A stretch of 29,424 bases of DNA. Origin: Pleurotus ostreatus/Saccharomyces cerevisiae fusant. Its lineage: Eukaryota > Opisthokonta. The notes under the pieces are model-generated. The model was given only the letters and a program-made list of their open reading frames with translations, was not told where the DNA came from and did no database searches. The position numbers were made by a program, and so were the translations under genes. Positions 5,999 through 28,501 of this stretch are shown piece by piece (position 1 is the first letter of the stretch; every line of letters starts with the position of its first letter). Location: assembly GCA_024196135.1 (NCBI GenBank), contig JAMQCK010000306.1, positions 1 through 29,424 on the forward strand, in the 5' to 3' direction.

Positions 5999-7818
5999 AT
6001 GTTCGTGATGAATAGGTCTCCCACCCCGGTCTCGTATAAGCGAGTGATCATTTGCCGAGAGGCCCTTACTGAACACCTTGATCAAGACTGCGCTCCTGTC
6101 GCGGAGAGCAACGGTCTCGAGTTGAAGCGCGGCTACAGGTGAGCATTATTTGTTCACGAGACCACAGCCAGTCCATTCTGACTAGCTTGTGTAGTGATGA
6201 GTACGAGGAATAGGGCAGCGCGGGCTTCAGGCGCTCAGGGTGTGGGACAGGGACCGAATCACGCTGGTAAGCCCGAGCTTTCTGGATCACAACAATCATT
6301 CTGACTCTTAGATAGGTCGTGCAAAATGTGATGATACCATCCCTTCGAACGCTCACAACGTCGCGGCGCGCGTCGGTAAGGCATACCCTCAAATTTCTTG
6401 AACTTTGACTGACAATCTGCAAGACTTCGAGCGAGGCTCTCAAGGTGACCACGCTGCCTACACTCGCGCTGGACGCAAGATTCATGCCGTCGAAAGGCCA
6501 GAGAACGCCCTCCCTCACCCTTTCGGTACGTGAGCCGCATTGTATGGCCGCATAGCTCGTACTCACCCCCTCCGAAGTGCTCACAACGACACGCCCGATG
6601 TCCCCTTGTGTCCAATCACATATCGACCGCCTTCCGAACGAGTTACTCTGCGCGATTTTTCTCCTCACTGGCGATCCATCTCCCGCATCTGGCTTCCCCC
6701 GTGATCATGATATGCACGACACCGGTCTGTATCCGGGCGCGGTACGACTGTACAGCAAAGCTGCGGTTCTCCTCGGTCGCGTCTGTTCTCGATGGTTGCA
6801 CGTGACACGTGGCTTTCCTGCGCTGTGGACCGCCGTAGACGTGACCTTTCCGGGGGCGAGAGCTACCGCCATATTGAAACGCTGCCTTGAGTACTCCGCC
6901 GGTCTTCCTCTCGTACTGTGGATCAGCAAGAGCGTGAATCCGAACGACGATTATTACGGGGTCGATCCTCGTTTCATGCGCCTCGTTGCTGCCAACGCCC
7001 ATCGATGGGTCGAAATATCCATCCAATTGGGCGATGAGTGTCACACTTTGCAGCCCCTCATCTCACTGCCGTCTGGCTCCTTCATCGCACTGAGGAGGGC
7101 CCGCATAGAGTTCATGCGGATCCATGTAACCGACAACAGCTTGGATACACTCTTGTGGCGGTCTTTCTATACGTCCCCGCACTTGGTCGCTCTGGATTGG
7201 AACCGCACTCAATACATCCAGTATAGTCTCTCCTCGGCCCCCTTACGACAACTCACCGAGATCGGCGTATATTCCACTGAGCCTGGAATGCTCCTCCCCA
7301 TCCTCCTCAACTGCACCGCCCTTGAGGTTCTGTTCGTCCATGTAGACTGGCCGTGGGGCCCAGAGGAGGATAACGGAACAATCCCCCTGGCGTCGCCAAT
7401 ATGCCTTCCGCGCCTACAAGCACTGGCATTGCGTGGACCTTACGATTGGGCACCGCTCTTTTCTGCATTGGAAGTCCCGTCGCTCAACCGGCTCGACTTG
7501 TCGCATATGGACATCGAGCATGTTGTCATAGAGAAAATGCTCCGTCGGTCGTCTGCTCGCCTGATGATGCTCACTGTCTATTGGCCTGCGATGGGTCAAG
7601 GCGATAATATAGTCGCTCTTTTGCACAGCCCGGCAACGCGTCACCTTCAGGTCGTGCGGTATGAATGTGCTTATCCTGGGGCGTCTGAATTTGGATGGGA
7701 GGAATCATTCGACTTGTGTCCTTCAGTTCCATCACATATCTACTATACTACAAGATATGCAGAGGCGGAAAAGTACTACAGGATGATATGTACAACGACA
7801 AACTCTAGAGTAGTGTAG
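5999..7818 (+). CDS. F1: F-box protein with Leu-rich C-terminal part
   Basis: Predicted five-exon gene: 5999-6138, 6208-6266, 6316-6375, 6424-6525 and 6578-7818, giving 533 aa in one open frame. All four introns (48-69 bp) are GT-AG. The model is supported because exons 2-4 of F1 and F3 have nearly the same lengths (59, 60 and 102-105 nt) and phases. The F-box starts at IDRLPNELLCAIF (about residues 136-148) and ends with VCSRWLHVTRGFPALW (about 189-204), separated by a GDPSP-containing insertion. The rest has Leu-rich units such as LPRLQALALRGP and RSSARLMMLTVYWP. By family knowledge, F-box proteins recruit substrates to SCF (Skp1-Cullin-F-box) ubiquitin ligases; the substrate is unknown. 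The gene is convergent with A2, with 41 bp between stop codons. Confidence 0.85.
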
Positions 7819-7859
7819 CCGAGACAATATGTAGCCCCAGAAAGGCTGTATGTACCCCG

Positions 7860-10210
7860 TCAGTCTAATCGCATAGTCCACGTCGGATGAGCATTCATAA
7901 TGGCTCGAAGTTTGTCAAGCCCACGCGTGTCAGTGAGCGTGAAATGTACAACGGCATTTCCCGGAACACGCTTGAGCGCTTGCTCGCAAGGGAACGCGGA
8001 CTTCAGGTGCATGACAAATGTGCGTGCTTCGTCTACAACAGGGGAGCCATGCGCAAAAACCGATAGGTAAGTTGGCTGGAGGGAATCGATAGGCCCCGCC
8101 GCCAGAAAAGCCAGTCGGCCACTGCAATGCGTCACGAGGATCTTGATATCCGTCTCTGAAGTGGGGAAGAGAGCCTCAAGGATGCACAAATCCTGGATCG
8201 GAAACGTGATAAGTCGTGCTGCTGAGGTCATTCCTTCGATCCGAACGTGGTGAAGGTGAGAGAAGTCCTTCACAATCGAGCGTCGAGCCTGCTGTGCCGC
8301 CTTGGTGACTTGCACGTCGTCGTATGCCTTGAATAAGACTACTGCCGTGTTGAAGCTGCTCAAGTAGGTCCGAATTGCAAGCAGGATAGCATCCAGCGCG
8401 TCTTGGCCATCCCATTGACCTCCAAAGACAAGGACTTGATGAACCTCCACATAAAGCTGCGTGAGATCATGCTGACGCGCTTCACAGACACCAATTAGGC
8501 TCCTAAGCCCTTCATCAAAGGGCTCAGATGGGACCGGAAGCTGCGACTTCTTCCCAACGGAGATCAGCAGCCTGCGTCCGAGGAAGACCCCGTCTGTTAC
8601 AATGAAGTCGCGGTAGTGGATGTACGTCGAGTCGGAGCTTTCTTCGCTGACGTCGCGGGCAGCACGAGCAGGACCCTCGTCCGCGACATCGCTAGAGTGC
8701 TCCAAATTGTCGTCCGGGGGAGTCTCCTCTTGAGCCAGCGAAGATGCTTGAGGAGCTTCTCCGCGCGTGGCTGACGCGGCCTCCGAGGCGACCCTCTGCT
8801 GCTGCTGTCCCGCGTCACCCTCCTGGTCAACGACTCGACGAGGCGGATCCGACATCATGGCAGCCAACTCGCGCCTCGCAAGCCCCTCGTCGTAATGCCT
8901 CGCCTCCGCTTCAGCCGCAGGACTGTAGTGCAGCAAGGCAGAGCTTGCGGAATGAGTGGAACTTGTCTCGAGCGAGGGGAAGGAGAGCAGGGCACCGGTC
9001 GTCTGCGCAGCATCCGCGTTCCCGGAGGACGACGCGGCAGGGCCGGACTGCGCCGGCGCGACACCAGGACCCTGATGGTCGAGAGCGGGTAGAGGTACCG
9101 TACGACTCAGAGGCGCGTACAAGGCCGGATGTAACGGGTCGGGAGAGGGCGCCAACTGAGGATATGGGTCGTCCTTCGGGGAGTTGAAACTCAACATTTA
9201 TCTGGTAAGCTTCCGGATGGGCAAGTATATCGTTGAGAGTGTCGCGGTCGTGAGTGGACAAGACAAACGCCGAGTCCCCTTCGCCAGAGGTAGCGCCGGT
9301 AGCATTGATAGAGTCGCCAATGCCGTAGTGCTCCTGAGAAGAGCTCGCCTGAGGAGTGTTGTCCTCCTGCGGCGCTGCGATCGCCTGCTGCTCGCGCGAG
9401 GTAGCCTCTCTAGCGTCATCTCGCTGCCCGTCTCCGACGACCTCATGAGCTTGGGCTAGATTGCCCAAGGGTGCATGGGAAGGGCCAGCGCCGCTTTCTG
9501 CGAGCTCGCGCGAAACGCGCTCTCTCTGCGAGCGTCATCCAGACTCGGCGGCCTGCATCGTCTCGTTGTCTCCATTCGTGTCATAATCGCGCGAGACACG
9601 CGGGCTCCTAGGATCGTTAGATGGACGTATCTCATGCGAGGGCGACACAGGCCTGAGCGGGCGGACAAGCGGGCGGGAGGGTTGACCGACCAGGTCGGGG
9701 TTCGGAAAGTTCAGCATATCATCGTTCGGGCTTGAAGCTTCGTGGGTCGGGAAAGATGTGTATGGCTGGTGGTCGTCGAGTTCGGGTGGGTCTGGTGCGA
9801 TCCCGGGTGGGAACCCACCAGGACCGCCGCCGTGGCCCGCGAGACCCAGTGCAGCTTGAGCGATGGCATCCGCGATTCTATTGAAGCCTTGCTCTGTGGT
9901 CTCGCGGTGCCGCTCGATCGCATCTAGGATGTCGTCCGTACGCCCGGGATGAGCAGTAGCGTGCGTGGGATTGTCGTTCGTGAGGATGAAATCGTGAGAA
10001 GCGCGAGAACGCCGAAACAGTGTCGAGCGCAGAGCATGAATGTGGCGTGCGATGGAGCGACGAATCCGCTGTCTCCGTGTCGCGTGCGGCGTCGTGGAAG
10101 AGTGCTCGGAGGGCACCGGACCAGCCGGTGGATTGTTGGTCGTATCGTGCGGGTCCACTAGGAATTTGAGTAATCAGCAGGGATATGTGGTCACGGGAAG
10201 CATACGCACT
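7860..10210 (-). pseudogene. A2: family A gene, disrupted reading frame
   Basis: Family A copy with a split start (A at 10210, TG at 10157-10156, intron 10209-10158). The first part (to 9535) encodes the basic N-terminus, the heptad-like helix and Pro-rich sequence, then meets an in-frame TGA (9537-9535). The same frame stays open after the TGA to about 9200. There the family frame shifts by one: the C-terminal part (9197-7860) is in another frame. A 40-bp GT-AG segment (9195-9156) would restore the frame if it is an intron, but that is very short. The C-terminal domain itself is complete (DFSHLHHVRIEGMTSAARL, VHFTLTDTR) and ends in LRLD like A3. Either this is a pseudogene, an unrecognised intron removes the stop, or there is an assembly error. 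Confidence 0.6.
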
Positions 10211-10298
10211 GTCTTTAAGGCGTGCTCGATAGCGAAGTAAGACGTGACAAGGAGTAAAGCGTTCAAGACGTCGAAAAGGTCGTGAGCGTACAAGGAAT

Positions 10299-10316
10299 CG
10301 TGAAGGCGCCAGGCCG
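10299..10316 (-). promoter_or_regulatory. Conserved leader block of A2 (also 1793-1810 in A1, 16714-16731 in A3)
   Basis: The minus strand reads CGGCCTGGCGCCTTCACG between the TATA box and the splice-split start codon. The same 18-mer occurs in A3 and, with one change, in A1. Related sequence (CCTGGCGCCTCTCA) is in the A4 leader. The leaders of A2-A5 also share a reading frame starting A/S-W-R/C without any ATG. This could be a conserved regulatory leader or simply the trace of recent common ancestry. Confidence 0.45.
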
Positions 10317-10369
10317 TTCGTAAGTCCGTAAGAAATGCGTGTTGATGCTGTTTGAAGGAATGCGCAGAG

Positions 10370-10528
10370 CTTATAAGCGCGCCCTTGCGTGGGCGAGTGA
10401 TCCCGGCGTACAATAGCGCAGAACAAAAAAGCGGGGACGCTATTGTACCTGGGCACTTCAGTGGCTGCGGGATGTCGGTTGTCGAGTCGCTCGCTTCGCC
10501 GCATACAACAACATTCCCGGGGCCACAT
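10370..10528 (-). promoter_or_regulatory. A2 promoter: GTGGCCCC box, perfect ACAATAGCG inverted repeat, TATA box
   Basis: Minus-strand order is ATGTGGCCCC (10528-10519), then a perfect 11-bp inverted repeat GTACAATAGCG/CGCTATTGTAC (10408-10418 with 10438-10448), then CGCTTATAAG (10379-10370), 160 bp before the start-codon A. ATTGT is the core bound by HMG-box factors in general; whether such a factor acts here is inference. Confidence 0.6.
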
Positions 10529-10986
10529 TTGCGTGCCGCCAAATCCCGTGAGAGCGCGATATTCCAGACAAGTGACGGTCGGCGGCGTCTGAGGGAAGAT
10601 ACCCAGTGTTCGGGTGTGTATGTGGCGTCGGTAATTGTGTGGCGGTCCTTTGGGAAAGTGGCGAGGACAACAAGCGAGGAAGAAGCACTCATACTTCTCA
10701 CAGAAGAACAGCCTGGATGAGCGGCCTGAGGCCGGCTTCAATAAGAGATCAGAACTTCCAAAGTACGTGGCGGATGCGCATGCTTGAGCATCCCAGTTGG
10801 CCCTCGCCCTAAAGCGCAGGCGGGGTCGCGAGCATGAGAAGCTGCGCAGAGAATGATCATTGTCTGATAGTTGATCCGAGTATGGATCGATGATACGAAG
10901 GAAGGACAGCCGCTTGGGTTAAATTCGAGGTCATCGTCGTTGAGAGCAAGTTGAAGCAGCGGCAATCACCGGCTTGGCCAATACTG
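10529..10986. other. Divergent intergenic region between A2 and F2
   Basis: This separates the divergently transcribed A2 and F2. Apart from the A2 promoter elements on its left edge and the F-type upstream block on its right edge, I see no gene, RNA or repeat. Open frames crossing it on the minus strand run through the A2 promoter and leader and are not supported as genes. Confidence 0.5.
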
Positions 10987-11054
10987 TCACGTGCCATCAA
11001 AAAGCGGCCCAATCTCGACTCCTTCCTTTCTTGTTTACAATCGCCTTGCCCGAC
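10987..11054 (+). promoter_or_regulatory. F-type upstream block of F2
   Basis: A segment starting TCACGTGCCATCAAAAAGCG and running through CGACTCCTTCC and ACAATCGCC to the F2 start codon. Near-identical blocks lie directly upstream of F3 (12970-13043) and F4 (26793-26880, minus), with a weaker version before F1 (about 5915-5998). It is a shared F-family promoter or leader with a CACGTG (E-box-like) core in F2 and F3; no factor can be named. Confidence 0.5.
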
Positions 11055-12821
11055 ATGAATAGGCTTCCCACCGCAGCGTCGTATATACCAATGTTCCATC
11101 CCAATGGAACCATACTTCCTCAACACTTTCCCCAACCACAGTCGAAGACGAGGGATCCCGCGCTGCGCCGCGACAGGTGCGTTGAACGCGTCCCTTCGAC
11201 GAATCCGAGTACTTGCTGACCGTTGATTAGATGAACTCGACTGAGAAGAGCGAGCATGCGCCATGCGCGCAAAATCCTGCTTATGTGCCGAAGTGTGCAG
11301 GTGCGTTCACTAGTCAGAATGGTTGGAAGCTTTGCCGATCTCATCATAGAGCGTGTGTTCCCCCATGACGCCCACGATGTTGCAACGGACGTAGGTGAGG
11401 CACATCCAACATGTTCAACGAACTCATACTCACAAATCTCAAGAACTTGCCCAGGTCGCGCAAAGTGACCGCGCCGCCTTCGCTCGTGCTGAACAAGGCA
11501 ACTACGCCGTCGGAAAGCTGGAGAGCGCGCGCTGCCGTGCTCTACGTAAGTCCTCCTTGTACGTCCTGCCGCGTCGTTCAAGCTCACGCCTTCTAAAGTG
11601 TCCTTGATAACGCGCAAGCCGTCCTGTTATACCCCACCTCCAATCGATCATCTTCCTAACGAGATACTCTGCGCAATTTTCCTTCTCACTGGCGACCCGA
11701 GTCCCGCGGCCGTCTTCCCTCGCGACCCTATGATGCATCCATACGAACTGGACCACCGTAAGGTACAGCTTTATAGCAAGTGTGTAGTTCTCCTCGGGAG
11801 GGTCTGCGTACGATGGAGGGCCGTAACGCACAGCTACCCGCCATTGTGGACCATCGTCGACGTCGATGTGCCTGGAAAGAAAGCCACGCGCCGCCTACAG
11901 CAGTGCTTGGACCACTCTGCTGGCTTACCTCTCACCCTCTGCATCAGCAGGAGTCTCAAATTCGGCGGCGACAAGTCTGTTGATTCCCGCTTCATGTCTC
12001 TCGTCGCTTCGAATGCCCACCGATGGGAAGAGATCTCCATCGAGCTTTGGAGAGAGCACGACTGCCTACAGCCCTTGATCTCCCTACCTCCCGGGACCTT
12101 CATATCTCTCCGCCGGGCGCGTATATGCTTCTGGGGTGCAGGAGCGCAAGCATCGACCCCGGATACCTTGCTGTGGCGGTTGTTCTGCACGTCCCCAAGC
12201 CTTGATACGGTGGACTGGATACGCAAGGACTACATCCAAGCCGGGCTTGCCGACGCCCCTTTGCGCCAACTTACGAGGCTGGGTCTACACTGGATTGAAC
12301 CGAGTGTGCTCTACCCCTTTCTCAGTTCATGCACCGGTCTCGAGGAACTGCTCGTCAGTATTGATCAAACGGTCCTTGATCAGCAGCATGCGGGACCGCT
12401 TCCCATCCCGTCTCCTCTCCGACTACCCCACCTGAGAGTCCTGATGCTATGTGGACCCGCCAATTGGGAGCGACTTTTCTCTTCCCTGACCGTCCTGTCG
12501 CTCGAGCGCCTAGATGTGTCGCGCATGAACATACACGGCAGCGCTATAGAGCGCATGCTTCGTACATCGAACGCGCGCCTGAGGATGCTCGCAATCCATT
12601 GGCCTGCGAAGGACGAGGGCAACATCATTCTCGCTCTCCTCCGCAGCTCATGTATGCAACACCTCCGGATCTTGCGATATGAGCGATATCTGCCAGACGG
12701 CTGGGCCTTGGGATGGGAGGATACGTTTGATCTACGGCCATTCGTTCCGAATCACATCGCTTTCACAGAGAGTGCGGTCCAGGCGGAGCTGTATTATGCC
12801 CAGATGGTGCCTGATGCGTAG
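11055..12821 (+). CDS. F2: F-box protein with Leu-rich C-terminal part, unpaired copy
   Basis: Predicted exons 11055-11176, 11251-11300, 11350-11394, 11444-11545 and 11599-12821 give 513 aa in one frame; introns are 49-74 bp. Exon 4 is 102 nt as in F1 and encodes a related segment (AAFARAEQGNYAV against AAYTRAGRKIHAV in F1). The F-box starts at IDHLPNEILCAIFLL (about residue 122) and continues to VCVRWRAVTHSYPPLW. The C-terminal part keeps the family units LPHLRVLMLCGP and RTSNARLRMLAIHWP. Unlike F1, F3 and F4 it is not followed by a convergent family A gene: F3 starts about 220 bp after its stop, in the same direction. Its role is inferred to be an SCF substrate receptor; the substrate is unknown. 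Confidence 0.82.
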
Positions 12822-12969
12822 ATTTAGTACTAGACTTGTAGCGTATAGTCGAGCATGGATAGGCACGTTTCTATCACTCTCTTACCACACGAGATACTTG
12901 AGCTGATAAGAATGACCGCCGACAGCGCGAAGAAGATGCGCGGGGAACAGACGGACAAGTTGAACATGA

Positions 12970-13043
12970 GTCACGTGCATGTCGCGTGCCATCAAGAAGC
13001 GCCGGCCCGATCGCGACTCCTTCCCTTCTCGTCCACAATCGCC
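12970..13043 (+). promoter_or_regulatory. F-type upstream block of F3
   Basis: Contains GTCACGTGCATG and GCGTGCCATCAAGAAGCG, followed by CGCGACTCCTTCCC and ACAATCGCC just before the ATG at 13044, as in F2 and F4. It sits in the roughly 220-bp gap after F2. Confidence 0.5.
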
Positions 13044-13056
13044 ATGTACGACCTGA

Positions 13057-14851
13057 ATGGACCTCCCACGCCGGCACCATATATATCAATGCGCCATCCC
13101 AACCAAGGAATTCCTACCTGACACCCCTTCTCCACTTGCCACCTTGCTAAGACCGTTACGTGCGTTGGATCGCCATAGGTGAGCTGGATATATCCGCGAC
13201 CATTTGACCGAGCTTTCTGACCAGACCATGCAGGGATGTACTCCGAGAAGAGACCCATGTGCGCATCAGACGCGCAGGATGTCTACGACGGGGTGAACTC
13301 CGCGAGCAAGTCTCTTACTCAGCGTTATCGCTACTAGGCTTACCGACAGCATCACAGGTCGGCCCTCACCGCGTAATTATATCCCTGCCAATACGGGCGT
13401 TGTCGTATCGCACGAAGGTGAGCACTCCTCATTCTTCCGCATGAATGGTGCTCACGACCTCCGAGAAGGACCTGACCTAACCACCCACGAGAAGCACGGC
13501 CCCCACCTCACTCGCGCTGGACGCAAGATTGACGCTGTCTACGGGTGTGAAAACGCGCCTTTCCGCCCTTCTCGTACGCTTATATCTGACCCTTGCATGA
13601 TAAAGCGTTTTGACTCTTTTGGCAGCGCCCGAAGTCACGGTAGCGCGCCAAGATCTCATTCACGCCCAGCCTTCCATCGACCGTCTCCCGAATGAGTTGC
13701 TCTGTGCGATCTTCCTCCTCACAGGCGACCCGAGTCCCATATCTGGCTTCCCCCGTGATCGCGATATGCACGACAACGGCAAGAATTCCTTCGCGGTGCA
13801 ATTTCACAGCAAGGCCGCAGTCATCCTGGGACGCGTCTGTTCTCGATGGATGAACGTAACGCGCGGATTTCCTGCGTTGTGGACTCTCGTCGATGTGTCC
13901 TATCCGGGAACGGAAGCTACCGCCATACTTAAGCGCTGTCTCGTGTACTCTGCCGGCCTTCCTCTTGTCTTGTGGATCAGCAAGAGCGTGAACCCAGACG
14001 CGGGCTACTACGGAATCGATCCTCGCTTCATGCGTCTCGTCGCTGCCCACGCCCATCGGTGGAGCGAAATATCCATCGAGATGTGCGATGAGCGCGACGC
14101 TCTGCAGCCTCTGGTTGCGCTACCACCCAACTCCTTCACTGTGCTCAGGAGAGCCCGCATAGAGTTCTGGCGCGGGAGGGCAGGCCCCGACAGCGCCGAC
14201 AGGCTGCTGTGGAAGTCATTTCTTGCATCCCCGCAAATCACTGCCGTCGATTGGGAACATCAGTACATTCGAACCGGCCTGACTTTGGCGCCCCTGCGAC
14301 AACTGACAGAGATCGGCCTCCACTCTGCTGAACCCGATATGCTTCCTCCCATACTCAGTACTTGTACCGCCCTTGAGGTACTCTACATTGGTATAGACCC
14401 GCTGCGGCTTGAAATCGGAAGTGCGGGGCTTAAGTCAATTCAGTCTACCTTTCATCTTCCACAGCTGCGCGTTTTGATGTTATGTGGGCCGACGGACTGG
14501 ACACCGCTCTTTGCTTCTTTGACCGTCCCCGCCCTGGATCGGCTGGACGTCTCGCACACGGACGTCTACCACGTCGACATAGAAGCTATGCTTTGGCGGT
14601 CGTCAGCTCGAGTGAGGATGCTCACTATCTTCTGGCCAACCATCAATCAGGAGAAGAACATTCCCGCTCTTTTGCAGAGCTCGGTCATGCAAAACTTGCA
14701 GATCGTGCGTTACGAGCATGCTTTTCCTGGCTATTCTAGGCTGGGATGGGAGGATAAATTCGACTTGTGTCCGCTGGTCCCATCGCATATCCTATATACC
14801 ACAGAGTACACAAAGGCAGAAGGATACTACAGACATACGCAGACGACATAA
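13057..14851 (+). CDS. F3: F-box protein, start region frame-shifted relative to its paralogues
   Basis: Predicted exons 13057-13178, 13234-13292, 13358-13417, 13469-13573 and 13626-14851 give 523 aa in one frame, with introns of 51-65 bp. Exons 2 and 3 are 59 and 60 nt, as in F1. The family start equivalent is ATG 13044, whose frame (PPTPAPYIS, like PTPVSY in F1) stops at TGA 13119-13121. ATG 13057, one frame over, stays open through exon 1 and joins exon 2 in the correct phase. So either the start has moved or exon 1 has a one-base frameshift. The F-box begins at SIDRLPNELLCAIFLL (about residue 132); Leu-rich units include LPQLRVLMLCGP and RSSARVRMLTIFWP. It is convergent with A3, with 52 bp between stops. 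Confidence 0.78.
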
Positions 14852-14903
14852 ATATCACAGCAATCTATACGGATCATAGATACATAGGTCTTCACGGACG
14901 CAG

Positions 14904-16619
14904 TCACTCGAGTCGCAGAGTCCATCCAGAGTGCCGAACAACAATGTCACGAAGCTTCTTCACACTACGCGCGTCGGTGAGCGTGAAGTGTACGACTACG
15001 GAGCTGCTTTGAAGTAGACCTAAAAGCCGCTCGCAGGGGGCATCGGATTTGATGTGCAGCACGAAAGTATAATTTTCAGTTACGGCCTGATTTCCAGGGT
15101 TCTGCGCGGACTTCGAGAGGGGGTTCCTGTCTGAACCCCTGTCTATGAGTCCTGCCACAAGAAAGGTTAGCTGATTGCTGCACATCCGTACAAGCGCCAT
15201 CATGTCGGCCTCAGTGATGCGGCTGAGGACCTCAAGAGCGCGCAGATTTTGCAATGGAAACGCAAGAAGCCGTGCTGCCGAAGTCTCGCCTTGAACCCGA
15301 ACATGGGTAAGATGTGTGAAATCCTGAGCAATCAGTAGTCGCGCTTGCTGCACCGCCTTATCATCTGGCGCGCTGTCTTCTGTCTTGAAAGAGAGGACAA
15401 CCGCGAGGAAGGCCGCCAGATGCGGGCGAAGGGCATACAGTATGGCGTCTAGCGCATCTTGGAATTTGTAACCGCCGTCGGTGACCTGGACTTGGTGAAT
15501 TTCCACGTCCAGCTGCGTAAGGTCATGGCGACGTTCCTGGCACACACGGACAAGCGTCTCGATCCCTTGAGCGAAGGGCTGCGACGATAGGTCTTGCAGC
15601 GACGACTTTCGCGCAACGCGAATCGTCAGCTTGCGTCCAAAGTAGAGACCGTCAGCAAGAGAATCGCGGCAGACAATGTGCGTCGAGTCTCGGTCTTGTT
15701 CGAATGAACCGCGAAGAGCATTGCTAGGTCCCCCATTGGCGCCGTCGCGAGACTGCTCGAGACCGTCATCCGGAAGGGGTCCATCTTCCATAGGCGAAGA
15801 AGGACCAGGAAGTTCTCCTTGCGAAGAAGCTCCTGCATCAGCAGAAAAGACGCCGGGCTGCTGTCCCGCTTCAGCATCCGGGCTAGCGTTCGGAGTAGAA
15901 TGCGGGGCAGAAAGATCATCAGATAGAAGCGACGTGCGAGGCGAGTGGCTCAAGTCACTCGGAAGTGACGAAGAGGAAGGCGTCAGCCGGTCAGCTGCAA
16001 GCTCTTCCGGATGGCCGTCGGTTGCGTCTGAAGCTTCGCCGTCGATCTGGTGACCCTTTGGACTTCTCATGACAGCGGCAAGGGCTACGCGCGCGGACTG
16101 GTCGAAGAGCGAATGAGGGCCTTCGCCGTATGAAGCACGACTCTGGTCGGGCGGAAGAGAGATGGGCGTGTGTGCGGCTTGGCCGATGACTTCGGGCGGC
16201 TCTGGTCTCAGCCCGGGTGGAAGCAAGTTGGGGTCGACGTCGGGACCTGCGAGCCCTTTCCCACCTTGAAAAAGAGTGAGCATCAGTCTTTCAAAGCCTT
16301 GCACCAGGATTTCGTTCGTCTGCTCGACCGCGTGCAGGGCATCGTCCGTACGAGTCAACAAAGCTGCCGTGTTGTGTGCGATGATATCGAGGGCGGAGTC
16401 GTTCGTGGCGATGAGGTCGTAGGATGCGCGAGAGGAATGCGCAAGAAGAGAGCGTGATCCGGAAATGTGGCGCCTAAGGGGGTCGCTAATATTCGGTTCC
16501 CGGGACGAGGACGACGTTGCAGGTGCCGGACCAGCCGTCGAATTGTTGTCCGTGTCATCGAGATTCACTGCAGATTATGAGAGTCAGGAGGATCCAAGGT
16601 TAAGGGAGGTCTACGCACT
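14904..16619 (-). CDS. A3: family A protein, intact reference copy
   Basis: Start codon split by an intron: A at 16619, TG at 16567-16566, intron 16618-16568. The protein is 554 aa in one uninterrupted frame. N-terminal features are a basic Arg/Ser-rich start, then a helical stretch with heptad-like Leu/Ile spacing (about residues 50-95, including ALDIIAHNTAALL). The middle (about 110-290) is Pro/Ser/Asp-rich and low in complexity. The C-terminal domain (about 300-554) contains HDLTQLDVEIHQVQV, QDALDAILYALRPHL, HLTHVRVQGETSAARL, a Leu-rich unit (LRALEVLSRITEADM) and VVHFTLTDAR, ending TLRLE. I do not recognise the domain; the Leu-rich units resemble those of the neighbouring F-box proteins. 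No signal peptide or membrane segment is evident. Confidence 0.8.
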
Positions 16620-16785
16620 GTCGTATGAGGTGTGTGTGCGGTAGCGGGGAGACGTGGCTGCGAATTTTGACGGTAGTTCAGGACGTCGGCGAAGTTGTGA
16701 GCGTGTAGGAGGACGTGAAGGCGCCAGGCCGATCGTGAGTCCGTGAGCGTATGAGGGGCGTTGCTGCTGGACAAATTGTGCAGAC

Positions 16786-16956
16786 CTTATAAGCGCGGGG
16801 TTTCTTGAGGTAGGTGTCCCGGCAGACAATAGTGCTCAACAAAAGACGTAGGTGCTATTGTTCCTTGAATATTTCCAGCCGCTGTGGGGAGCCCCGGTTG
16901 TACCATCCCTACCCGGAAGCGCTTCGCCCCGCAACACAATATGACCGGAGCCACAT
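16786..16956 (-). promoter_or_regulatory. A3 promoter: GTGGCTCC box, ACAATAG/CTATTGT pair, TATA box
   Basis: On the minus strand: ATGTGGCTCC (16956-16947), an inverted pair ACAATAG...CTATTGT (16861-16855 and 16832-16826), and CGCTTATAAG (16795-16786), 167 bp before the start-codon A. Order and spacing match A1, A2, A4 and A5. Confidence 0.6.
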
Positions 16957-17916
16957 TTGCTTATTACCGCTTACTGGAAGCGAGCAGAGAGGTTAACTCT
17001 GTATATCTCACAGTAAGACGAATGGTGCTCACCTTTCAAGATGTCCTTACGTACGAGTTTGAGCCCAGAGCTGGGAAGGCGCCGCATGTGCGGAGCTGGT
17101 TTTCAATCAAAAGTATAGTCTGTCAACAAAGTGGGGCTCGTTCATAGCAACAGCTTTTCAATTGTAGTCAAGCGACAGCCTGCCACAATTTCGAGGAAAG
17201 TGGGCGCCTCGAAGCATGGGATCGAACCCAACGGTCCGGAGAGAATGAAGCCCACCCGTTGATTGAGGTTGAGAGTAGGACGAATAAGCTCAAATTTGCA
17301 TCATCAAAGTCACCCAGTATGTATGGTGGAATGCGGAGGGATCGCTAGAAGGGCGAGTCGGCTCAAGGTGATGGTTGAAGACAGAAGGCGGCAAGTGCCG
17401 AACGTGCCGCACTCGTGGTATCGGTGACCGTCACCATGTCACGCTATTGTTCTTTGGCCGAGCCTCTCGCCGCCCGCCGATAATCTGCTTCGAGCGCAGT
17501 GCTGAGGTACAGTGTGCGGCCCTTACCTGGTACTGGGAAAACTCCATCGCCCAAGAAACTGGGCGCCAAATTAGGTGGCCAGCGGCGAAAATTTCGAACT
17601 TGAATCCCTTATGGCCAAAGGAGCTGACACTACTTTCCAGTCGAGCTCATCTTTCCCAGGCTATTGTACCAAATGGGGTATGCGAGGAACAAAGTTATTT
17701 CACCAGATTTTCCTTTAGCGGCCACAAACGGGCTACATCCCATTGGCAGGTCCTCTTCGGGTATCTCACACAATCGGACTCGAGTCGTCATCACAAGCGT
17801 CGTTAGCAGAGGAATCAACAGCGAACCAATTTCACTGCATGTCTATGGTGTGCGTACGAGTACAACATTATTTTTCTACTTCCACAAAGTCCATCCCGTC
17901 AGTAAGGTACAACATT
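16957..17916. other. Intergenic gap between the A3 promoter and the enolase 3' end
   Basis: About 960 bp in which I see no convincing gene. The longest open frame (17375-17806, +) has no recognisable domain, paralogue in the window or obvious splice context. It should hold the enolase 3' UTR on its right edge. This gap separates the accessory cluster from the housekeeping pair. Confidence 0.5.
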
Positions 17917-19513
<1,597 letters not shown>

Positions 19514-19871
19514 GGTGGTTGTGGGAGAGGCTGATGGGGAGCGTCGGAGCGGATTGCGCGCCTTTTATCGTGACGCCAACCGTGACCAGGCCGAGGTCCG
19601 CGTGCGCCCATCCGCCAATCACCGCGCGGGAGCTGGGTCGGGAATCGGGCGGCGCCTCACGCCCGCCGTCGGCAGCGCAAATTCGATCCTGCGGCCTTGC
19701 CTGTCTGCACCCCTCGAACGCAGTCTGGGCTTGCGCGCGCCCCTTCGCACGCCGCCACCGATCCAGAACAGGGCACTAGTGGGCACTCGCTGCGCGTCCG
19801 TTCACCACGAACTACACACACAATATGTATATAGCGACCGACGTGTGCTACCAGGCGTCTCGCACAGTCTC
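19514..19871 (-). promoter_or_regulatory. Intergenic region holding the enolase promoter and the NOG2 3' end
   Basis: 358 bp between the enolase start and the NOG2 stop, both genes on the minus strand. The minus strand carries GATAAAAGG near 19570-19562, a plausible TATA element for strongly expressed enolase. Sequence further up is GC-rich with a short TATGTATATA run near 19820-19835, in the NOG2 3' UTR side. No other gene is seen. Confidence 0.5.
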
Positions 19872-22128
19872 TCACCGCCTCGCCTTGGCCTTCGGGCCCT
19901 CCCTCCCAGTGCGCTTGCCAGTTGGCAGGCTCTTCATGTGCGCCGCCTTGGCCCTATTTTTGTTCTTGACGTTCGCCTCAGAGTAGAAATTCGTGGCTTT
20001 GCGCTGAGGATCACGATCGTCAGCCGTGAAGAGGAGAAGAGGGTGCCCGTGACGTACCTTATTTGTCTTCATGCGCGAAGCCTTTTCCTGCGTCTTGCCT
20101 TCTTGACCCTCCTCGTCTGAATCGAGTAAATCAGCTTGAATGGATTCGTCAACAATCACGGTGGTGAGTCTACCTTGAGTATCAGCACGCGCGGAAGATG
20201 TGTCTTCCGCAGGAGCGGCGGGCTCCGCGGTGAATCCGGTCCAGACGTCGTCCCAGGTCATCTCTTCGTCCTCTTCGTCCTCCGCGCCCACTTCTTCCGC
20301 ATCTTCCCCTGACGACTGTTCGTCATCATTTTCCGCCGCCTCTACATCTTCTTCCTCCCCTACGGTATCCTCCACCTCGAGCGGCCGGACATCGTCGTCG
20401 ACGAACGTGTTCTTCTGCATGATGGACCCCAAGTTTTGCTTGACGCCGGGCACGACACGTTCGTCCTCCTCGACCGCCTTCTCCTTCCCCTTGCCCTCCT
20501 TGATGGCCTTGACCTTCGCCGCCTTCGCCTCGGCCTTGTTCAGCTCATCCGGCCGCTCGGGCGGCGGTACGAAGAACGGTATCCGCCCGCGCACCCAGTC
20601 GCTCAGGATGATCTTCGCAACCGAGTCCAAGTCCGGCTCGCCCTGCTTCAACAACCGCCCCTTCATCCTCGCCAGCTTGTCCAGCAACTCCTCCGGCTCC
20701 CAGCTCTTCGAGTGGTCGTTCTCATCCGGGAGTGGCACGCCGTACGTTCGCGACAGGTAGATCGGCTTCACGCGCTCCATAAGCGCCGGGATGTGCTCGG
20801 AGGGTGTTGGCAGCGCTTCTACGCGCACGACACCCTTCAGCACGGTCGACGTCTGCGAGTCGTGCGCGGAGGTCGGGACGACACCCGGGCAGTCGATGAG
20901 GTAGATGCGCCGGGTGAGCGTGATGTACTGCCAGACCTTCGTCTCGCCGGGTACGGGCGCCACGCGGCAGACCTTGCCACTCTTGAGCGTGTTAATGACG
21001 CTCGACTTGCCGACGTTGGGGTAGCCGACGAAGCCGACGGAGATCTGCTTCTTGTCGGAGTGTAGCTGGGAGAACTGGCGGAGGAGCTGGATGAGCGAGC
21101 CCTTGCCAAAGGAGTGGTTGGGGGAGGCATGGAAGGCGATGGTAGGGTAACGTGGGGTGAGGTGCTGAATGTAGCGAGCCTGCATATGAGTTAGTACAGT
21201 GTACGAAGGGAAGTACGAGCGACATACAGTAACCCAGTTCGGGACCAAGTCGCACTTGTTGATGACGAGAACGACCTGCTTGTGCGCCTTCTCCTTCTTG
21301 ATGAACTCGAGGATAGACTCGCACATGGTGCCGAGGGGGTCGCGAGCGTCAAGGACGTGGAGGATAACATCGGAGGAGTCGATGACCTTGTAGAGCTCGC
21401 CGTAGATGCGGCGGGAGGTCCCCTTTGCGTAGATGGGCTCGAAGAAGTCGGCGTGGGTTTGCGGCTCGAGAACTTCAACGGGGGCAGCGGCCGATCCCTC
21501 TTCGGGCTCCGCGGCGGCCTCGTTTGCGGCATCTGCGAGCTCGGCGAATGAGCCGACTTCGACGCGGGGGCGCTTGCGCTGCGCCTTGGGACCAAAGGTA
21601 TCGGAGAAGGGCTCGGTCTCGACAATGTGGGAGCGCTGAGATGGATCAGTGAGGATTCGTAGATTGGGGAAAGTATGCGCACCTTGCGAGTATTGGGGTT
21701 GGCCGCATCGTCGAGAAACGCCATGGGGAGCTTGTTCCTCCGCAACAGCACGGAGTAGGGGTCATCCTTCTTCGTTGCAAGGCTCGTCCTGAAGTGATCG
21801 AGGGCAGTTTGGGAGATCACCCTGGTGTTCCCTGCGCAAAGTTCAGCAAGGGGAGTGATCGGTGGGTGTACGACCACTCACCAAACCACCGCCGGTCGGG
21901 CTGCACCCTCCCCGGCTTCGTCTCGTCCTCCCCCTTCTGGAACGCCGCCGCCTCGATGATCTTGCCGTCCTTGTCGCGCACCGGCTTGCCGCCGTTGAGC
22001 ATCTTCAATCGCGCGACCTGCTTCGCATTGCGGTAAAAATTCTCTCCCTTCACGCGCTTCAGGGAGATCTGGGAGGCAGAGGAGCGCGGCTTGGATGAAT
22101 ATCCTGCATTTTTGGATGGGGGAGCCAT
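19872..22128 (-). CDS. NOG2: Nucleolar GTP-binding protein 2 (NOG2/NUG2/NGP-1 family)
   Basis: Circularly permuted GTPase of late nuclear 60S ribosomal subunit assembly (established role of Nog2/Nug2). Exons: 22128-21882, 21831-21683, 21635-21228, 21179-20058 and 20003-19872, giving 685 aa. The start is ATG 22128 (MAPPSKNAG); an upstream in-frame ATG adds a non-conserved extension. The N-terminal region includes KGENFYRNAK and VEVLEPQTHADFFEPIY. The permuted G motifs run G4 NKCDLVP (about residue 258), G1 GYPNVGKSS (about 320) and G3 DCPGV (about 364). They are followed by the acidic, low-complexity tail usual for the family and a basic C-terminus. Intron 3 (48 bp) and the last intron (54 bp) are multiples of three and lack stops, so they could be misread as coding. 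Its 5' half has been duplicated at 27045-27810. Confidence 0.95.
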
Positions 22129-22742
22129 CGCCGGCAACGATGATGAGCGCGAGTTTTTGGTCAAAAAAGAAATGTCCAAATCAGGCAAAAAATGAGTGTG
22201 ACAAGTGTGACAAATCGGCGTGGCGTGACGAACCGGTGGTGTTCCATTAAATTTCCATCTTTTTTCCTACCTTCATGCGCACCTTGTCACAATCAAATCC
22301 GCCTGGATGCGGACTGCTCTTGCGGATATCATATGCTGTATGGTCTCTGAATGGTGAAGTTTATTGAGGGAATTTCACCGGGGGCAGCGAAAATGTGGCC
22401 CCGCGCCGTTTTGTTTTCACCTCCGAATGTGCTTCGGAAACATAGGGCTATCGCCATGCACACGGCTGCTCAACAGCTGCTCACAATAACGCCTACTATC
22501 TTATTGTCTACTATCAATTGTTCAGCAGGAAGCTTCGCGCGAGCGAGGGCGCGCTTATAAGCTTCCGACATTCCATCTACAGGTCAGCATCTCCAGACAC
22601 GAACTTCAATACGCATCTCGCCCTACCTCCTGGCGCCTCTCATTACTTCTTGACCCTCTCGACCTTACCGACCTCTTGTACGAGTGCTCTACTTCCATCC
22701 TCTCGCGTCCTTCTTGCTGCCCTACCGTGCCTCATAACCTCA
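21310..22742. repeat. Segmental duplication, copy 1 (NOG2 5' half to A4 leader)
   Basis: The 5' half of NOG2, its upstream region and the A4 promoter and leader are all matched, in the same order and orientation, by 27045-28399. Intergenic matches include TGTGAC(A/G)AGTGTGAC, CTTCATG(C/T)GCACC, GAATGG(T/C)GAAGTTT and AATTCACCGG. This copy carries the intact NOG2, so it is taken as the source. Confidence 0.8.
22393..22561 (+). promoter_or_regulatory. A4 promoter: GTGGCCCC box, ACAATA/TATTGT motifs, TATA box
   Basis: ATGTGGCCCC at 22393-22402, ACAATAACGCC from 22483, TATTGT at 22502-22507, CAATTGTTC near 22516, and CGCTTATAAG at 22552-22561, 181 bp before the start-codon A. It shares the layout of the other A promoters. 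The following leader has no ATG. Confidence 0.6.
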
Positions 22743-24636
22743 GTGCGTGTCACGGTTAATTTCTCCACGGAATTCTGGAATGCTGAATACGTCTATTACA
22801 GTGCCTGCTCCTGATGAGTCTGCCCATAGTGGCACCAGGACCTCGTCGGCTGGTCCGACTGGCCCTAGTGGTTCGACTGGCTTGGATAATCCTCGTTCTG
22901 GTTCTGCAGCGAGCCAGGCTGATTCTGGTCCCCTTAACTCGGCTGCCCCTTCTATTGATTCTGCTCACTCAACCCACTCAACCCATCCAACCCGTGCAGC
23001 TGAGCTCGCTAGCCTTGCCGGTTCGGCCGATATAATGGATCTGGATATAGCTGTGACTGAAGATCGCCGTCGTGGCATTATCGCGCGCCTCCTTGGTCGC
23101 AGCCGCACCCCTCCGGCTCGTTTTTTCACCGTTCATGTGGATCCTGAAGACTTGGCCTTCGTCCTCGGGCGCGCTCAGCATCGCGTCCGAACCACGCCAC
23201 GACTGCGGCATGCCGCCTCCGTCCTTCATCTGAATCGGGCTTACCGGGAGCATGCCCTCGATAACGCTGACGAGCAAGGCAGTCCCCGTCACGATGTCGA
23301 TGACGGACATTCGCATGGACCGACTTGCGCGGATGCTCAGACCAGTCCGGTGCCTACCGTTCTGACATATCCATCGCCGGACCACGTCTCTCTTAACGGC
23401 AGCGCGCCGCTGGACGTCACCATGAATCAGAACATACCCACCATCCCCTCCGAAAGCTCTGGCGGGTCGCCCAGAAATTGGTCTGCATCCAATGGCCGGG
23501 CGTCTACGAGGTCTCTGACGCGAAGTATTCCCCTTCGTTCGGCATTCTATTCTCTTCGTGGGACGGGGCTCTCGCGCCCGTCGGAACCGTCCGCGAGTCG
23601 GCCAGCTGGGCTGCTCCTTGCTTTGGGCGATCCGGGTCCGAGCACTCTTGGCCTTGGTCGTGCGAGGGCCAACAATCAGCAGCCATCGAACGCCCCAACC
23701 GACCATCGCAACGCCTCAGGTGCGGAAACGGGACCTTTTGGGGGCAACACTTCGTCGCACGGCGCGGTAGCCTCGCAGCCTCCTTTTACGGACGCCCGAC
23801 CTGCATCCTCCCCAGACATTAACTATCGTTCCGAGTCGGACGCGGTTCCGGACGTCATTCAGGCAGGCGACTTCACGTACCTATCCTTCCAGATCTCCGA
23901 AGTCGACAATGGGCTTTCCGTCGAGCTCAAGCTTTCCATCCGCGTTGGAAGAAAGACCCAGCTGCTTGGAAACTCGCTCGGGCTGTTCAGCGAAAGGCTT
24001 CGCGATGTCTGCTTCCTCTGCGAAAAGCATCGTTCTAAGCTGGAGCTGCTTGAACTCGGGTTCCACGAAAGCCCCATTATTGGCGGTCCCGCCGCCGGAC
24101 AAGATGCGCTGGACACTGTCTTGCTGTCTTTGACTCCGTTTGTCAGCAGTGTACATAAGGTTTTCATCATTTTTAACGCGGACGACGACACGCAAAGCCG
24201 AATGGCGGCTACCGGGAACTCTCGGAGGGAGATCAGAGACGCTCTGTCTGGCCTTCGCTTTCTTAGACTCGAAGGCAACACTACGGCCGCGCGCCTACAC
24301 ACGTTTCCTCTCGAGAGCTTGCGCGTTCTCGAGCTTGTCGCGGAGGCTACTGAACGGGACATTGGGGCTATACTCGTGCAATGCAGCAAGTTGGCTGTCT
24401 TGTTCGCAGGGCCTGTCATGTCCAGTGCCAGTCAGAATTACTTTCCCCGTTCAAGGGACCCAAACATCAGCTACCCGTCCGTCATACAACTACACTCTGC
24501 TTATCCGTGCGAAGAATTGCTAGCTGATCTACCGTCCTCTATCGACCTTCGCTTCACGCTCACGGACGCTCATAGTCTACCAAAAATCCAGAAATATTTC
24601 AGTACAGACAATGAATGGTCTTTGATTATCATTTGA
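22742..24636 (+). CDS. A4: family A protein, divergent subfamily, intact
   Basis: Split start: A at 22742, intron 22743-22801, TG at 22802-22803; the spliced protein is 611 aa (starting MPAPDESAHSGT). If the intron is retained, an in-frame ATG at 22780 gives a start seven codons longer. The N-terminus differs from A1-A3 and shares with A5 the block VTEDRRRGIIARLLGRSRTP. The middle is Ser/Pro/Thr-rich. The conserved C-terminal domain begins at about residue 370 (FTYLSFQISEVDNG, LSIRVGRKTQL) and contains GQDALDTVLLSLTPFV, LRFLRLEGNTTAARL, a Leu-rich unit LRVLELVAEATERDI and LRFTLTDAHSL. It is convergent with F4, with 73 bp between stops. Function unknown. Confidence 0.8.
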
Positions 24637-24709
24637 GAGCTAATGTTCGTATATGTATCACCAATGTTACTCCAAAAACTCTCGCTATAGTACAGTAGAG
24701 AACGAGAAT

Positions 24710-26792
24710 TCATATCGTACCATCACATACTCTGACATACCATTGTTGTGCCTCTGTAGCGTTCCTGGTGAATAAGGCTCCCGGCGGGAGATACGACTGT
24801 GGATCAAAGTCATCCTCCCTCACTCCGTTCGAACCACCGCAATAGAAGGTCCTAAATCGCAAAATCCGCAGGCTTTTCAATGCCGGGCTACGAAGGAGAG
24901 CCGGAAAACCGTCCGCTTGACCCAATGCTGGCCAATGAACAGCGAGCATTCTCATGCGCGCAGACGAGCGCACAAGCATGTTTTCTATGTCATAATGCGG
25001 AATTCTCATGCTCGACATATCAAGGCGGTCGATTGCAGGCGCCGTGAGGGCAGTGAAGAGGGGTGTCCAGTTGATCATCCCGCATAGCATCAGAACGCGC
25101 AGACGCGGTAGATGAACGGCGGATGGCATGGACGGAGTAACGCTCCCCGGGCCCAGGTGCATCACGTCGGCCTTGATGTAAAGGTGCTCGAGATTGGTGC
25201 AAGTGCTGAGAATAGGAGAGATCATAGCAGGCTCCGTACAATGCAGACCGATGCTGGTGAGCTGCTGCAGCGGCGCGAGAGCAAGCCCTGATCGTATGTA
25301 CTCCTTTCGCACAAGGTCTGCGCAGCTGAGCTTCGGGGACGTAAAAAACAAATTCCAAAGGTGGGTGTCTGCAGTGTTTTCCTTGGTATTCGAAGCGTAA
25401 ATGTCGATACGAGCTCGTTCTAGGGCTTTAAAAGCGCCAGACGAAAGCATATCCAGAGGCTTCAGGACGTCGACCCCTCCGTTAGTCAACTCGATAGAGA
25501 TATCCCTCCACCGGTGAGCATATCCGGCGACGAGAGACATGAAGCGCGGATCAATCCGGTTCTGGCGCGCGTCCAGCTTGAAGCAGTTGCTGATCCATAG
25601 GGCGAGAGGGAGACCAGCAGAGTACTTTAAGCAGAGCTTCAAGATGCTCGTGGCCGCCCTTGTGGGGTAAATGACGTCCACGGTTGTCCACAACGCAGGA
25701 AAGCTGCGCGTCACGGCGTACCAGCGCGCGCAGACGCGGCCGAGAATGACGGCGGATTTGCTGTAGTATTTATGGGCTCTCGTTGCCTCCATATCGTACG
25801 CGTGCATCTCGGCGTCGCGAGGATATATAGAGGTAGGACTCGGGTCGCCGCAGATGAAGAAAATTGCGCAGAGGATCTCATTCGGAAGACGGTTGATTGG
25901 GGGTTGAGTATGCATGGACATCCTCGGAGTCATTTCGAACACTACAGAGGGAGGTCAGTATGTACTACAACGATGTGATATTAGTCTAAACGCACGCAAA
26001 GAACGCAGGATTGCATTGTCCAGGGTGTCGTGATACTCCAGGACACTAGGATAGGAAGCTTCTTGTTTGTTAGCATTGTTTGCGTGAAGTGAGCAGAGGT
26101 GCTCCCTACTGGAGTACTTGAGAGCCTCTTCCTCTTCCGGAGGATGAAGGCCACGGGGGAAGGTACGACCTGTCATAGGCTTGGTCAATCTAATGGCGCG
26201 TCTGATCACGGGACTCACGCGCGTCAGAGAAGAAGAAATCCCCCACTGCGCGCATGGTTGGACGCGCACCTGGCGCCTGAATGACCCTGTTGCCCGTATC
26301 CCTCGCTGCACAAATAATCAGAAGGCTCCGTCAACCCGATGGAGCGTTGATCAAGAGACTCACGCGCGTCAGAGAAGAACCAGCTCCCCGCTGCACGCCT
26401 AGTTGGTTGCGCGCCTGGCGCGTGTACGGCCCTGTTGCCCGTTTCCCTCGCTACACAGAACATCAGAAGTTATCTCGGCTTCATCAACCCAATGGCGCAT
26501 CTGATCTAGGGACTCACGCGCGTCAGAGAAGAACCAACTGCCCGCTGCACGCCTGGTTGGTCGCGCGCCTGGCGCGTGGACGGCCCTGTTGCCCGTATCC
26601 CTCGCTGCACAGAACATCAGTAGGGATTCAACACAGGTTTACTGTGATCACACCTGCAAGACTGCGATCCATTTATACGGTCCTTGGCTATCAGTGTCAA
26701 GAGAAGGGGGAGCGTTAGGAGGAGGCCATCTCGCAGTGAAGGCGCGTCAACTTATACGACCTCAGGGTGGGAAGTTCATTCATCGCGTACAT
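24710..26792 (-). CDS. F4: F-box protein, 5' exons rearranged
   Basis: The large exon is 25941-24710, with F-box INRLPNEILCAIFFI and VCARWYAVTRSFPALW, and Leu-rich units LPRLRVLMLCGM and RSSARMRMLAVHWP. Upstream, 26169-25996 (174 nt) combines what are exons 3 and 4 in F1-F3, with no intron between them. A 59-nt exon 2 at 26305-26247 fits the phases and the F1 exon length, but its donor (A|GTGGGG) is weak; a 36-nt version ending at GTGCGC also keeps an open frame. Exon 1 homology lies at 26792-26654 (MYAMNELPTL, like F1), but that frame hits a stop after 24 codons, so the true start is unresolved (ATG 26672 is an alternative). Two further copies of the exon-2 region lie in intron 1. Convergent with A4. 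The F-box core is certain; the 5' structure is not. Confidence 0.72.
26173..26627 (-). repeat. Tandem triplication of the F4 exon-2 region (units of 145-154 bp)
   Basis: Three head-to-tail copies, each with the landmark GACTCACGCGCGTCAGAGAAG (starts 26212, 26357 and 26511, the first base of each). On the minus strand each contains an acceptor-like TGTGYAG followed by an exon-2-like segment reading EGYGQQG or EGNGQQG (26305, 26450 and 26604 downward). Only the copy nearest the next exon keeps a GT donor at the F1-like position. In the other two it is GC, and the middle copy also has an in-frame TAG. Confidence 0.85.
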
Positions 26793-28229: not shown

Positions 28230-28501
28230 CCCAGTCTCCGAGCCCGCATCTTCAGACACGCCTCGACACGCATCTCACCCCGCGGCCTGGTGCCGTTCAC
28301 TGATTCCTGACGCTTACGACCTCACCCACGTCTTGGACGACCATTCGCTTGCCTTTTCGCGCGCTTCCTTCTCGCTCTTTTGCGTGCCACATAACTTGAG
28401 TGAGTATGCTGTCCCCCCTCTTTCGTGTTGATACTGACCACGCTGCCTTCAGTACTTCACTCCAATACGTTCGACACAGAGTCTCTTCATCAGCTGGTTC
28501 A

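What the first reader, a model, noticed from the sequence alone, without database searches (positions are those of the whole stretch)
5999..26792. A repeated tail-to-tail two-gene module: F-box gene plus unknown Leu-rich family A gene
Three times (F1/A2, F3/A3, A4/F4) an F-box gene faces a family A gene with only 41, 52 and 73 bp between stop codons, and the third pair is in the opposite overall orientation. Repeated retention of this pairing, through inversion and duplication, suggests a functional unit and not chance. Family A is not one I recognise. Options (inference): A is a partner or target of the F-box protein, or the overlapping 3' transcript ends make natural antisense RNA that links their expression. 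This is the best candidate for an undescribed system in the window.
Basis: partly seen in the sequence, partly recalled or inferred. Interest (0 to 1): 0.85.

Follow-up and report, generated by a model that had tools for sequence, protein, structure and literature searches.

The report
Paired F-box and LRR recognition genes

Summary
In detail: three tail-to-tail F/A pairs, 41, 52 and 73 bp between stops. In the same genome (Schizophyllum commune) I found 27 pair copies on 13 contigs, at most 21 loci once allelic contigs are merged. Of 30 A copies, 27 are paired, 2 run off a contig end, 1 has no F. Ten F copies stand alone. F is an F-box/LRR (FBXL-like) protein; A is a coiled coil, disordered linker and LRR-like domain without F-box. 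A and F trees agree (Mantel r 0.85).

Main new result: the assembly holds two haplotypes of several loci. In 4 of 6 allelic comparisons A's LRR half and F diverge together (synonymous divergence 0.5-1.9), while the N-terminal half of the same A gene stays at 0.08-0.24. Other strains carry the same discrete versions, and A and F versions match in 5 of 5 assignable strain-locus cases. This supports a co-inherited specificity cassette kept by long-term balancing selection.

Best mechanism (inferred): F brings an allele-matched partner, probably A, to an SCF ubiquitin ligase in a recognition system. Protein interaction, phenotype and antisense RNA are untested.

The parts
185..1672 (-). A1 (frame with linker and part of the LRR); 3' end at the left contig end, partner not seen
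   Evidence: frame; one search match to A3 E 9.7e-34
6556..7818 (+). F1, F-box/LRR exon; paired with A2 (41 bp between stops)
7860..10173 (-). A2 in two frames (7860-9197 LRR half; 9538-10173 N-terminal part)
11550..12821 (+). F2, F-box/LRR gene without an A at its 3' side
13604..14851 (+). F3, F-box/LRR exon; lies in the divergent cassette
14904..15690 (-). A3 LRR half (C-terminal); other half of the divergent cassette
15691..16574 (-). A3 linker and coiled coil; 81-100% identical (nt) to the other haplotype
13604..15690 (.). divergent cassette F3 + A3-LRR (52-75% nt identity between haplotypes). A3 linker/coil 81-100%; enolase 93%; the non-coding stretch between A3 and enolase is 55-87% and the stretch upstream of F3 71-83%
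22738..24636 (+). A4; paired with F4 (73 bp between stops), inverted relative to the other two pairs
24710..25954 (-). F4, F-box/LRR exon; its allele is C1172:1-816
28400..29424 (+). A5, cut by contig end; on the allelic contig C1172 the same gene is tail-to-tail with an F (A 3276-4991 / F 5047-6483)

Best explanation
F and A form a two-gene recognition cassette. Shown: (1) tail-to-tail pairs recur at up to 21 loci; (2) F has an FBXL-type fold, an F-box followed by an LRR solenoid; (3) A has a coiled coil (near-invariant between the alleles compared), a disordered linker and an LRR-like domain; (4) at four of six allelic comparisons the A-LRR half and F have diverged together, strongly in three and moderately in one, while the N-terminal half of the same A gene has not; (5) several strains carry the same versions, and A and F versions match wherever both could be assigned. 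Inferred: F is a substrate receptor of an SCF ubiquitin ligase, and its LRR reads its partner, most likely the LRR of A, in an allele-specific way. A's coiled coil and linker form a constant effector or assembly part and its LRR is the variable label. Tail-to-tail order puts the two variable halves within about 70 bp, so a matched combination is rarely split by recombination, while A's constant half recombines freely. Selection favouring rare versions would keep old versions, as at mating-type, self-incompatibility and fungal incompatibility loci. The likeliest biological use is self/non-self recognition between mycelia or nuclei; that last step is the least certain.
Confidence: 0.5

Rival explanations
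1. Plain block duplication: the A-F segment was copied many times as a piece of DNA and the two genes are neighbours without working together.
For: Trees are congruent as block copying predicts. A decayed piece of the NOG2-like neighbour lies in front of A5 and on C1172, showing that a block including neighbour DNA was copied. Some pair members lie in two frames and may be broken.
Against: Solo genes are lopsided: 10 F copies without A against 1 A without F. In that copied block A and F stay open on C1172 while the NOG2 piece decayed. The divergent block ends inside A, near its linker/LRR boundary, and not at a gene border.
Confidence: 0.2
2. Selfish toxin-antidote element: A is harmful and F, as in nematode F-box antidotes, sends it to degradation.
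For: A is rarely without F while F is often without A. F-box antidotes are known: KSS-1 binds its linked toxin and targets it through an SCF complex in Caenorhabditis tropicalis (PMC12680543, passages).
Against: Killing of non-carriers pushes toward fixation, not toward old versions shared among strains (inference). One A lacks F. A has no toxin-like domain among its Pfam matches.
Confidence: 0.15
3. Immune pair: the variable LRRs detect viruses or other parasites, and diversity follows an arms race.
For: LRR-like domains in both proteins, only Schizophyllum among the named homologues listed, old divergent versions.
Against: No nucleotide-binding or death-fold domain among Pfam matches; no concentration of differences on the concave face.
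Confidence: 0.15
4. Natural antisense regulation through overlapping 3' ends.
For: Stops are 18-135 bp apart in 24 of 26 pairs, and in one pair the frames overlap, so transcripts probably overlap (inference).
Against: It does not explain why A's LRR half but not its linker diverges with F. Any close convergent pair would show such overlap.
Confidence: 0.05
5. Artefact: C846, C515 and C455 are paralogous segments of one haploid genome, so there is no allelic polymorphism.
For: The contigs come from one unnamed assembly and no read depth is available.
Against: Enolase is duplicated with its flank. Among listed hits, each of five other strains shows only one of the two A3-locus versions.
Confidence: 0.08

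Closest known systems
S-locus of plants (S-RNase with linked S-locus F-box genes; PMC4106197 and PMC12403065, starts of abstracts in the listing)
   Same: An F-box gene is tightly linked to a highly polymorphic partner; versions are inherited as haplotypes; the F-box protein acts through SCF ligases.
   Different: The partner here is an LRR-like protein and not a ribonuclease; there are many pairs; fungus; no phenotype known.
Homeodomain mating-type pairs (HD1/HD2) of mushrooms (recalled)
   Same: Two adjacent genes in opposite orientation with their variable ends next to each other; many old versions.
   Different: No homeodomain; convergent and not divergent; F-box/LRR and LRR-like proteins.
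KSS-1/KLMT-1 toxin-antidote elements, C. tropicalis (PMC12680543, passages)
   Same: A rapidly evolving, clustered F-box/solenoid gene linked to its partner.
   Different: The partner there is a duplicated tRNA synthetase subunit; toxicity was shown there and not here.
Ascomycete het/vic incompatibility loci (PMC8229728, passages)
   Same: Polymorphic loci with signs of balancing selection, several per genome.
   Different: No domain of those loci was found here; for basidiomycetes that paper says the mechanisms remain completely unknown.
FBXL F-box/LRR proteins (FBXL2, FBXL17, SKP2)
   Same: F has the same fold along nearly its whole length.
   Different: Sequence similarity is below Pfam cut-offs in the window copies; the pairing with A is not known from them (recalled).

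Membership tests
FBXL-type SCF substrate receptor (for F) | F-box at the N-terminus | tested here: met
   34 of 49 family members match PF12937 at E<=0.01, best 2.9e-6; the four window copies match below the curated cut-off; invariant or near-invariant F-box columns; model residues from 22 align to FBXL2 from residue 9
FBXL-type SCF substrate receptor (for F) | LRR solenoid after the F-box | tested here: met
FBXL-type SCF substrate receptor (for F) | binds Skp1 and ubiquitinates a substrate | not testable with these tools
   no complex prediction or assay was available
F-box family (for A) | F-box | tested here: not met
   no F-box hit in 31 of 31 members at E<=0.1; the N-terminal part has a coiled coil, residues 59-103
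LRR fold (for A) | beta-alpha solenoid | tested here: met
S-RNase/SLF self-incompatibility locus | T2 ribonuclease partner | tested here: not met
   no such Pfam match in 31 A members
S-RNase/SLF-like recognition locus (works like) | linked F-box and partner co-inherited as discrete versions | tested here: met
   few strains and loci
HD mating-type pair | homeodomain | tested here: not met
   no homeodomain among Pfam matches of either family
NLR-type het gene | NACHT or NB-ARC domain | tested here: not met
   no such Pfam match
toxin-antidote element | toxic protein neutralised by linked antidote | not testable with these tools
   no assay; lopsided solo genes only
multi-allelic locus under balancing selection | old discrete versions shared across strains beside ordinary sequence | tested here: met
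   for the F3/A3 and C389b loci; small strain sample, no allele frequencies; flanks clean on both sides only at C389b

The most novel reading that the evidence does not exclude
The F/A cassettes are the determinants of non-self recognition (somatic incompatibility, or recognition between nuclei or mates beyond the known mating-type loci) in a mushroom. Matched F and A from one haplotype cancel through SCF-driven turnover, and a foreign A that no resident F can read triggers rejection. This would be the first molecularly defined basidiomycete allorecognition system, built from a two-LRR tail-to-tail specificity cassette.
Probability: 0.25. Interest if true: 0.93.

Novelty: new variant of a known kind. 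Interest (0 to 1): 0.78.

Why it matters
The mechanism of somatic incompatibility in basidiomycetes is stated to be completely unknown (PMC8229728, passages). Here is a set of up to 21 two-gene loci, several of them with sharply different versions, in a genetic model mushroom, with a likely E3-ligase receptor on one side. The halves that should carry specificity are predicted, so the idea can be tested by deletion and by pairing matched and mismatched strains. It also suggests how gene orientation can hold two interacting variable domains together while the rest of one gene recombines. A scan for balanced regions in S. commune reported that part of the genome could not be analysed for poor alignment or low SNP density (PMC9187340, passages); loci this divergent may have been missed for that reason (inference).

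Tried and rejected
Rejected or led nowhere. (1) A as a relative of known domains: no Pfam match for the window copies; 4 of 31 members touch an LRR model weakly, best E 0.006; no useful sequence match in the PDB. (2) A as an F that lost its F-box: profile comparison of clean alignments gives only probability 62% over the LRR part, so common descent of the two LRRs is undecided. The F profile had absorbed A sequences and its A hits were discarded. (3) Concentration of allelic differences on the concave LRR face: not seen (a rough split by predicted strand/helix and residue type). (4) A triplicated NOG2-A-F block: first read, dropped when one search showed that C1172:1-4294 is most likely the other haplotype of C510:25139-29424. 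(5) Counting 27 pairs as 27 loci: dropped. Allelic status is supported by flanks for C510/C846, C510/C1172, C389/C515+C989 and C449/C455 (pairs a and b); for C449c/C455a by order only; for C86/C453 and C512/C1090/C780 it was not settled. (6) Literature: the ten searches listed no paper on this gene pair or on an F-box expansion in S. commune; subscription journals are mostly not held.

Limits of the counts. Trees used 26 of 27 pairs (C515:315-593 left out as truncated), and genes split over two frames entered by their largest piece. dN/dS left out codons in stretches under 25% identity, so LRR divergence is understated; the F of C449a/C455c rests on 182 codons. Linkage in other strains is matched by strain name and contig length, apart from EV121. 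A weak F-like match at C453:7568-8074 and the remote F-box genes were not examined for neighbours. The S-RNase papers were seen only as the start of their abstracts.
Full report
WHAT IS THERE. The window is contig C510 of a 40.05 Mb genome in 1277 contigs. Its A and F proteins, and those of sister contigs, match Schizophyllum commune proteins at up to 94-99%. Four F-box/LRR genes (F1-F4) and five family-A genes (A1-A5, the last cut by the contig end) lie around an enolase gene and a NOG2-like GTPase gene (named by eye).

HOW GENERAL IT IS. Searching the same genome with A3 and F3 found the two families on the same 13 contigs, F with additional weak matches elsewhere. I laid the fetched loci on contig coordinates and searched all frames with profiles. 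This gave 27 tail-to-tail F/A pairs: C1090 3, C1172 1, C389 2, C449 3, C453 2, C455 3, C510 3, C512 2, C515 2, C780 1, C846 3, C86 1, C989 1. Stop-to-stop distances in 26 of them run from -16 to 457 bp, median 70. Four more searches with divergent A proteins added one A copy, C1090:56620-57219. Its 3' neighbourhood shows no F, so it counts against strict pairing. Of 30 A copies, then, 27 are paired, 2 (A1, A5) are cut by contig ends and 1 has no F. Ten F copies have no A at their 3' side (C510:11550; C1090:62695, 65071, 72509, 80475; C1172:7507; C389:7787; C512:15819; C515:3052; C989:3880), two of which (C389:7787, C989:3880) are probably alleles of each other; three more F copies lie at or within 0.5 kb of contig ends. 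A few paired copies lie in two frames (F of C455c, with stops; A of C1090c and C449c; A2), by intron or breakage.

CO-DIVERGENCE OF THE PAIRS. Trees of 26 A and 26 paired F genes give the same main groups. Their distances correlate with r 0.85, reached by 0 of 5000 permutations. This shows that pairs travel together; block duplication alone would give it too. Some placements differ between the trees (C449c/C455a, A4/F4, the C1090-C512-C780 group). All 22 whole-gene dN/dS values lie between 0.16 and 0.57, A above F in 10 of 11 pairs of comparisons.

TWO HAPLOTYPES. One search showed long matches between C846 and the left half of the window, and one search showed enolase twice, on C510 and C846, 99% identical over 403 aa (one stop in the C846 frame, probably in an intron that the query reads through). 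C846 is therefore most likely the other haplotype of this locus, C1172:1-4294 that of C510:25139-29424 (94%), C515 plus C989 that of C389, and C455 that of C449. This lowers 27 pairs to at most 21 loci (20 if C449c and C455a, matched by order only, are one). It also gives A5 its partner: the same gene on C1172 is tail-to-tail with an F.

THE CASSETTE. Along F3/A3 the haplotypes are 54-75% identical (nt, 150-bp windows) through F3 and 52-73% through A3's LRR half, then rise within about 450 bp to 96-100% in A3's linker; enolase is 93%. The non-coding DNA between A3 and enolase is uneven (55-87%), and that upstream of F3 is 71-83%, so the outer limits are not sharp there. At C389b against C515b they are: 92-99% before A, 80-97% in A's N-terminal half, 47-65% in A-LRR, 48-71% in F, 52-71% for about 600 bp beyond F, then 85-95%. 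C449b against C455b behaves alike (A N-half 90-92%, A-LRR 55-78%, F 69-84%), and F1/A2 more weakly. Synonymous divergence (A N-half / A-LRR / F) is 0.08/0.99/1.49 (F3A3), 0.22/0.62/0.48 (F1A2), 0.24/1.36/1.87 (C389b) and 0.24/1.09/0.94 (C449b). In the two allelic pairs of like version, C389a-C989 and C449a-C455c, it is 0.14/0.07/0.07 and 0.05/0.05/0.10. Because synonymous sites show the pattern, it reflects different ages of the two halves of A, not only amino-acid selection. Over seven comparisons (the six above plus C453b-C86, whose allelic status is unsettled) F dS follows A-LRR dS (r 0.86) more than A N-half dS (r 0.40). The inner boundary lies inside A, which a plain block-copying account does not predict.

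VERSIONS IN OTHER STRAINS. At the A3 locus two strains have LRRs 99% and 79% identical to A3, and three have LRRs 92-95% identical to the C846 version; the versions are 47-49% identical, yet the linker is 87-98% identical in all. A sixth protein, P0003, belongs to neither (35% and 50%); it is closest to C846b. At the C389b locus four strains have an A-LRR 77-95% identical to C389b and one 99% to C515b, the two being 40% identical. Where A and F of one strain could both be assigned to a locus, versions agree in 5 of 5: EV714, FB107 and H4-8 at C389b, K525 at F3/A3, and EV121 at C846b. The EV121 case is direct: its A protein P0007 is 94% identical to C846b's A, and the tail of the gene model reads the antisense strand of an F, 86% identical over 125 aa to the antisense of C846b's F (E 5e-71), so A and F are tail-to-tail in that strain too. 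Three F proteins (P0013, P0016, P0020) could not be assigned. Among listed hits no strain of five shows both A3-locus versions, which favours alleles over paralogues.

READING. Shown: a recurrent pair, an SCF-type receptor fold, an LRR-like partner with a constant N-terminal half, and at several loci a co-inherited variable block. Inferred: allele-specific recognition between F and A, or of a shared target, and rare-version advantage. Old shared versions argue for negative frequency dependence and against a simple killer element. The tail-to-tail order has a natural explanation: it brings the two variable 3' halves within about 70 bp. Known analogues in logic are the plant S-locus (an F-box gene linked to its target, starts of abstracts) and mushroom homeodomain mating-type pairs (recalled). 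F-box antidotes of nematodes (PMC12680543, passages) show that F-box genes can be tied to linked partners. For basidiomycetes, incompatibility mechanisms are called completely unknown (PMC8229728, passages).

AGAINST. There is no sign that differences collect on the concave LRR face. One A has no F, and some paired copies may be broken. Strain numbers are small and, EV121 apart, linkage in other strains is read from contig lengths. S. commune has balanced haploblocks over about 10% of its genome (PMC9187340, passages), so a divergent block alone is not unique there; what stands out is the depth, the match between two genes, and the repeated place of the inner boundary.

Noticed in passing
window 2256-5807: About 3.5 kb insert with inverted terminal repeats of about 550 bp (75% identical; 2272-2818 and 5232-5786), absent from the other haplotype C846. 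The 9-mer CCAACCGAG lies near both edges, possibly a target-site repeat.
   Followed up: partly
window 27023-27792; C1172:1997-2233: Decayed partial copy of the NOG2-like gene (about 54% amino-acid identity, two frames) in front of A5, left by a block duplication.
   Followed up: partly
window 26177-26624: About 150-bp repeat units between F4 and the NOG2 fragment, shared with C1172 in shifted registers.
   Followed up: no
upstream of A1-A5 (e.g. 1860-1925, 10375-10440, 16795-16860, 22500-22560, 28150-28225): By eye, a shared promoter arrangement: a TATA-like TTATAAGC element, an ACAATA motif and a GGCCACA/TGTGGCC element.
   Followed up: no
C846:7717-11278 against window 11550-12821: Apparent copy-number difference between haplotypes: a full F/A pair on C846 between the F1/A2 and F3/A3 alleles, where the window has the solo gene F2.
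   Followed up: partly
C1090:55501-57219: The one A copy without F is convergent with an ORF that by eye resembles a class-II DAHP synthase.
   Followed up: partly
C449:2717-3101: About 390 bp present in C449 but not in its allele C455, between F and A; it accounts for the widest gap (457 bp) in the set.
   Followed up: no
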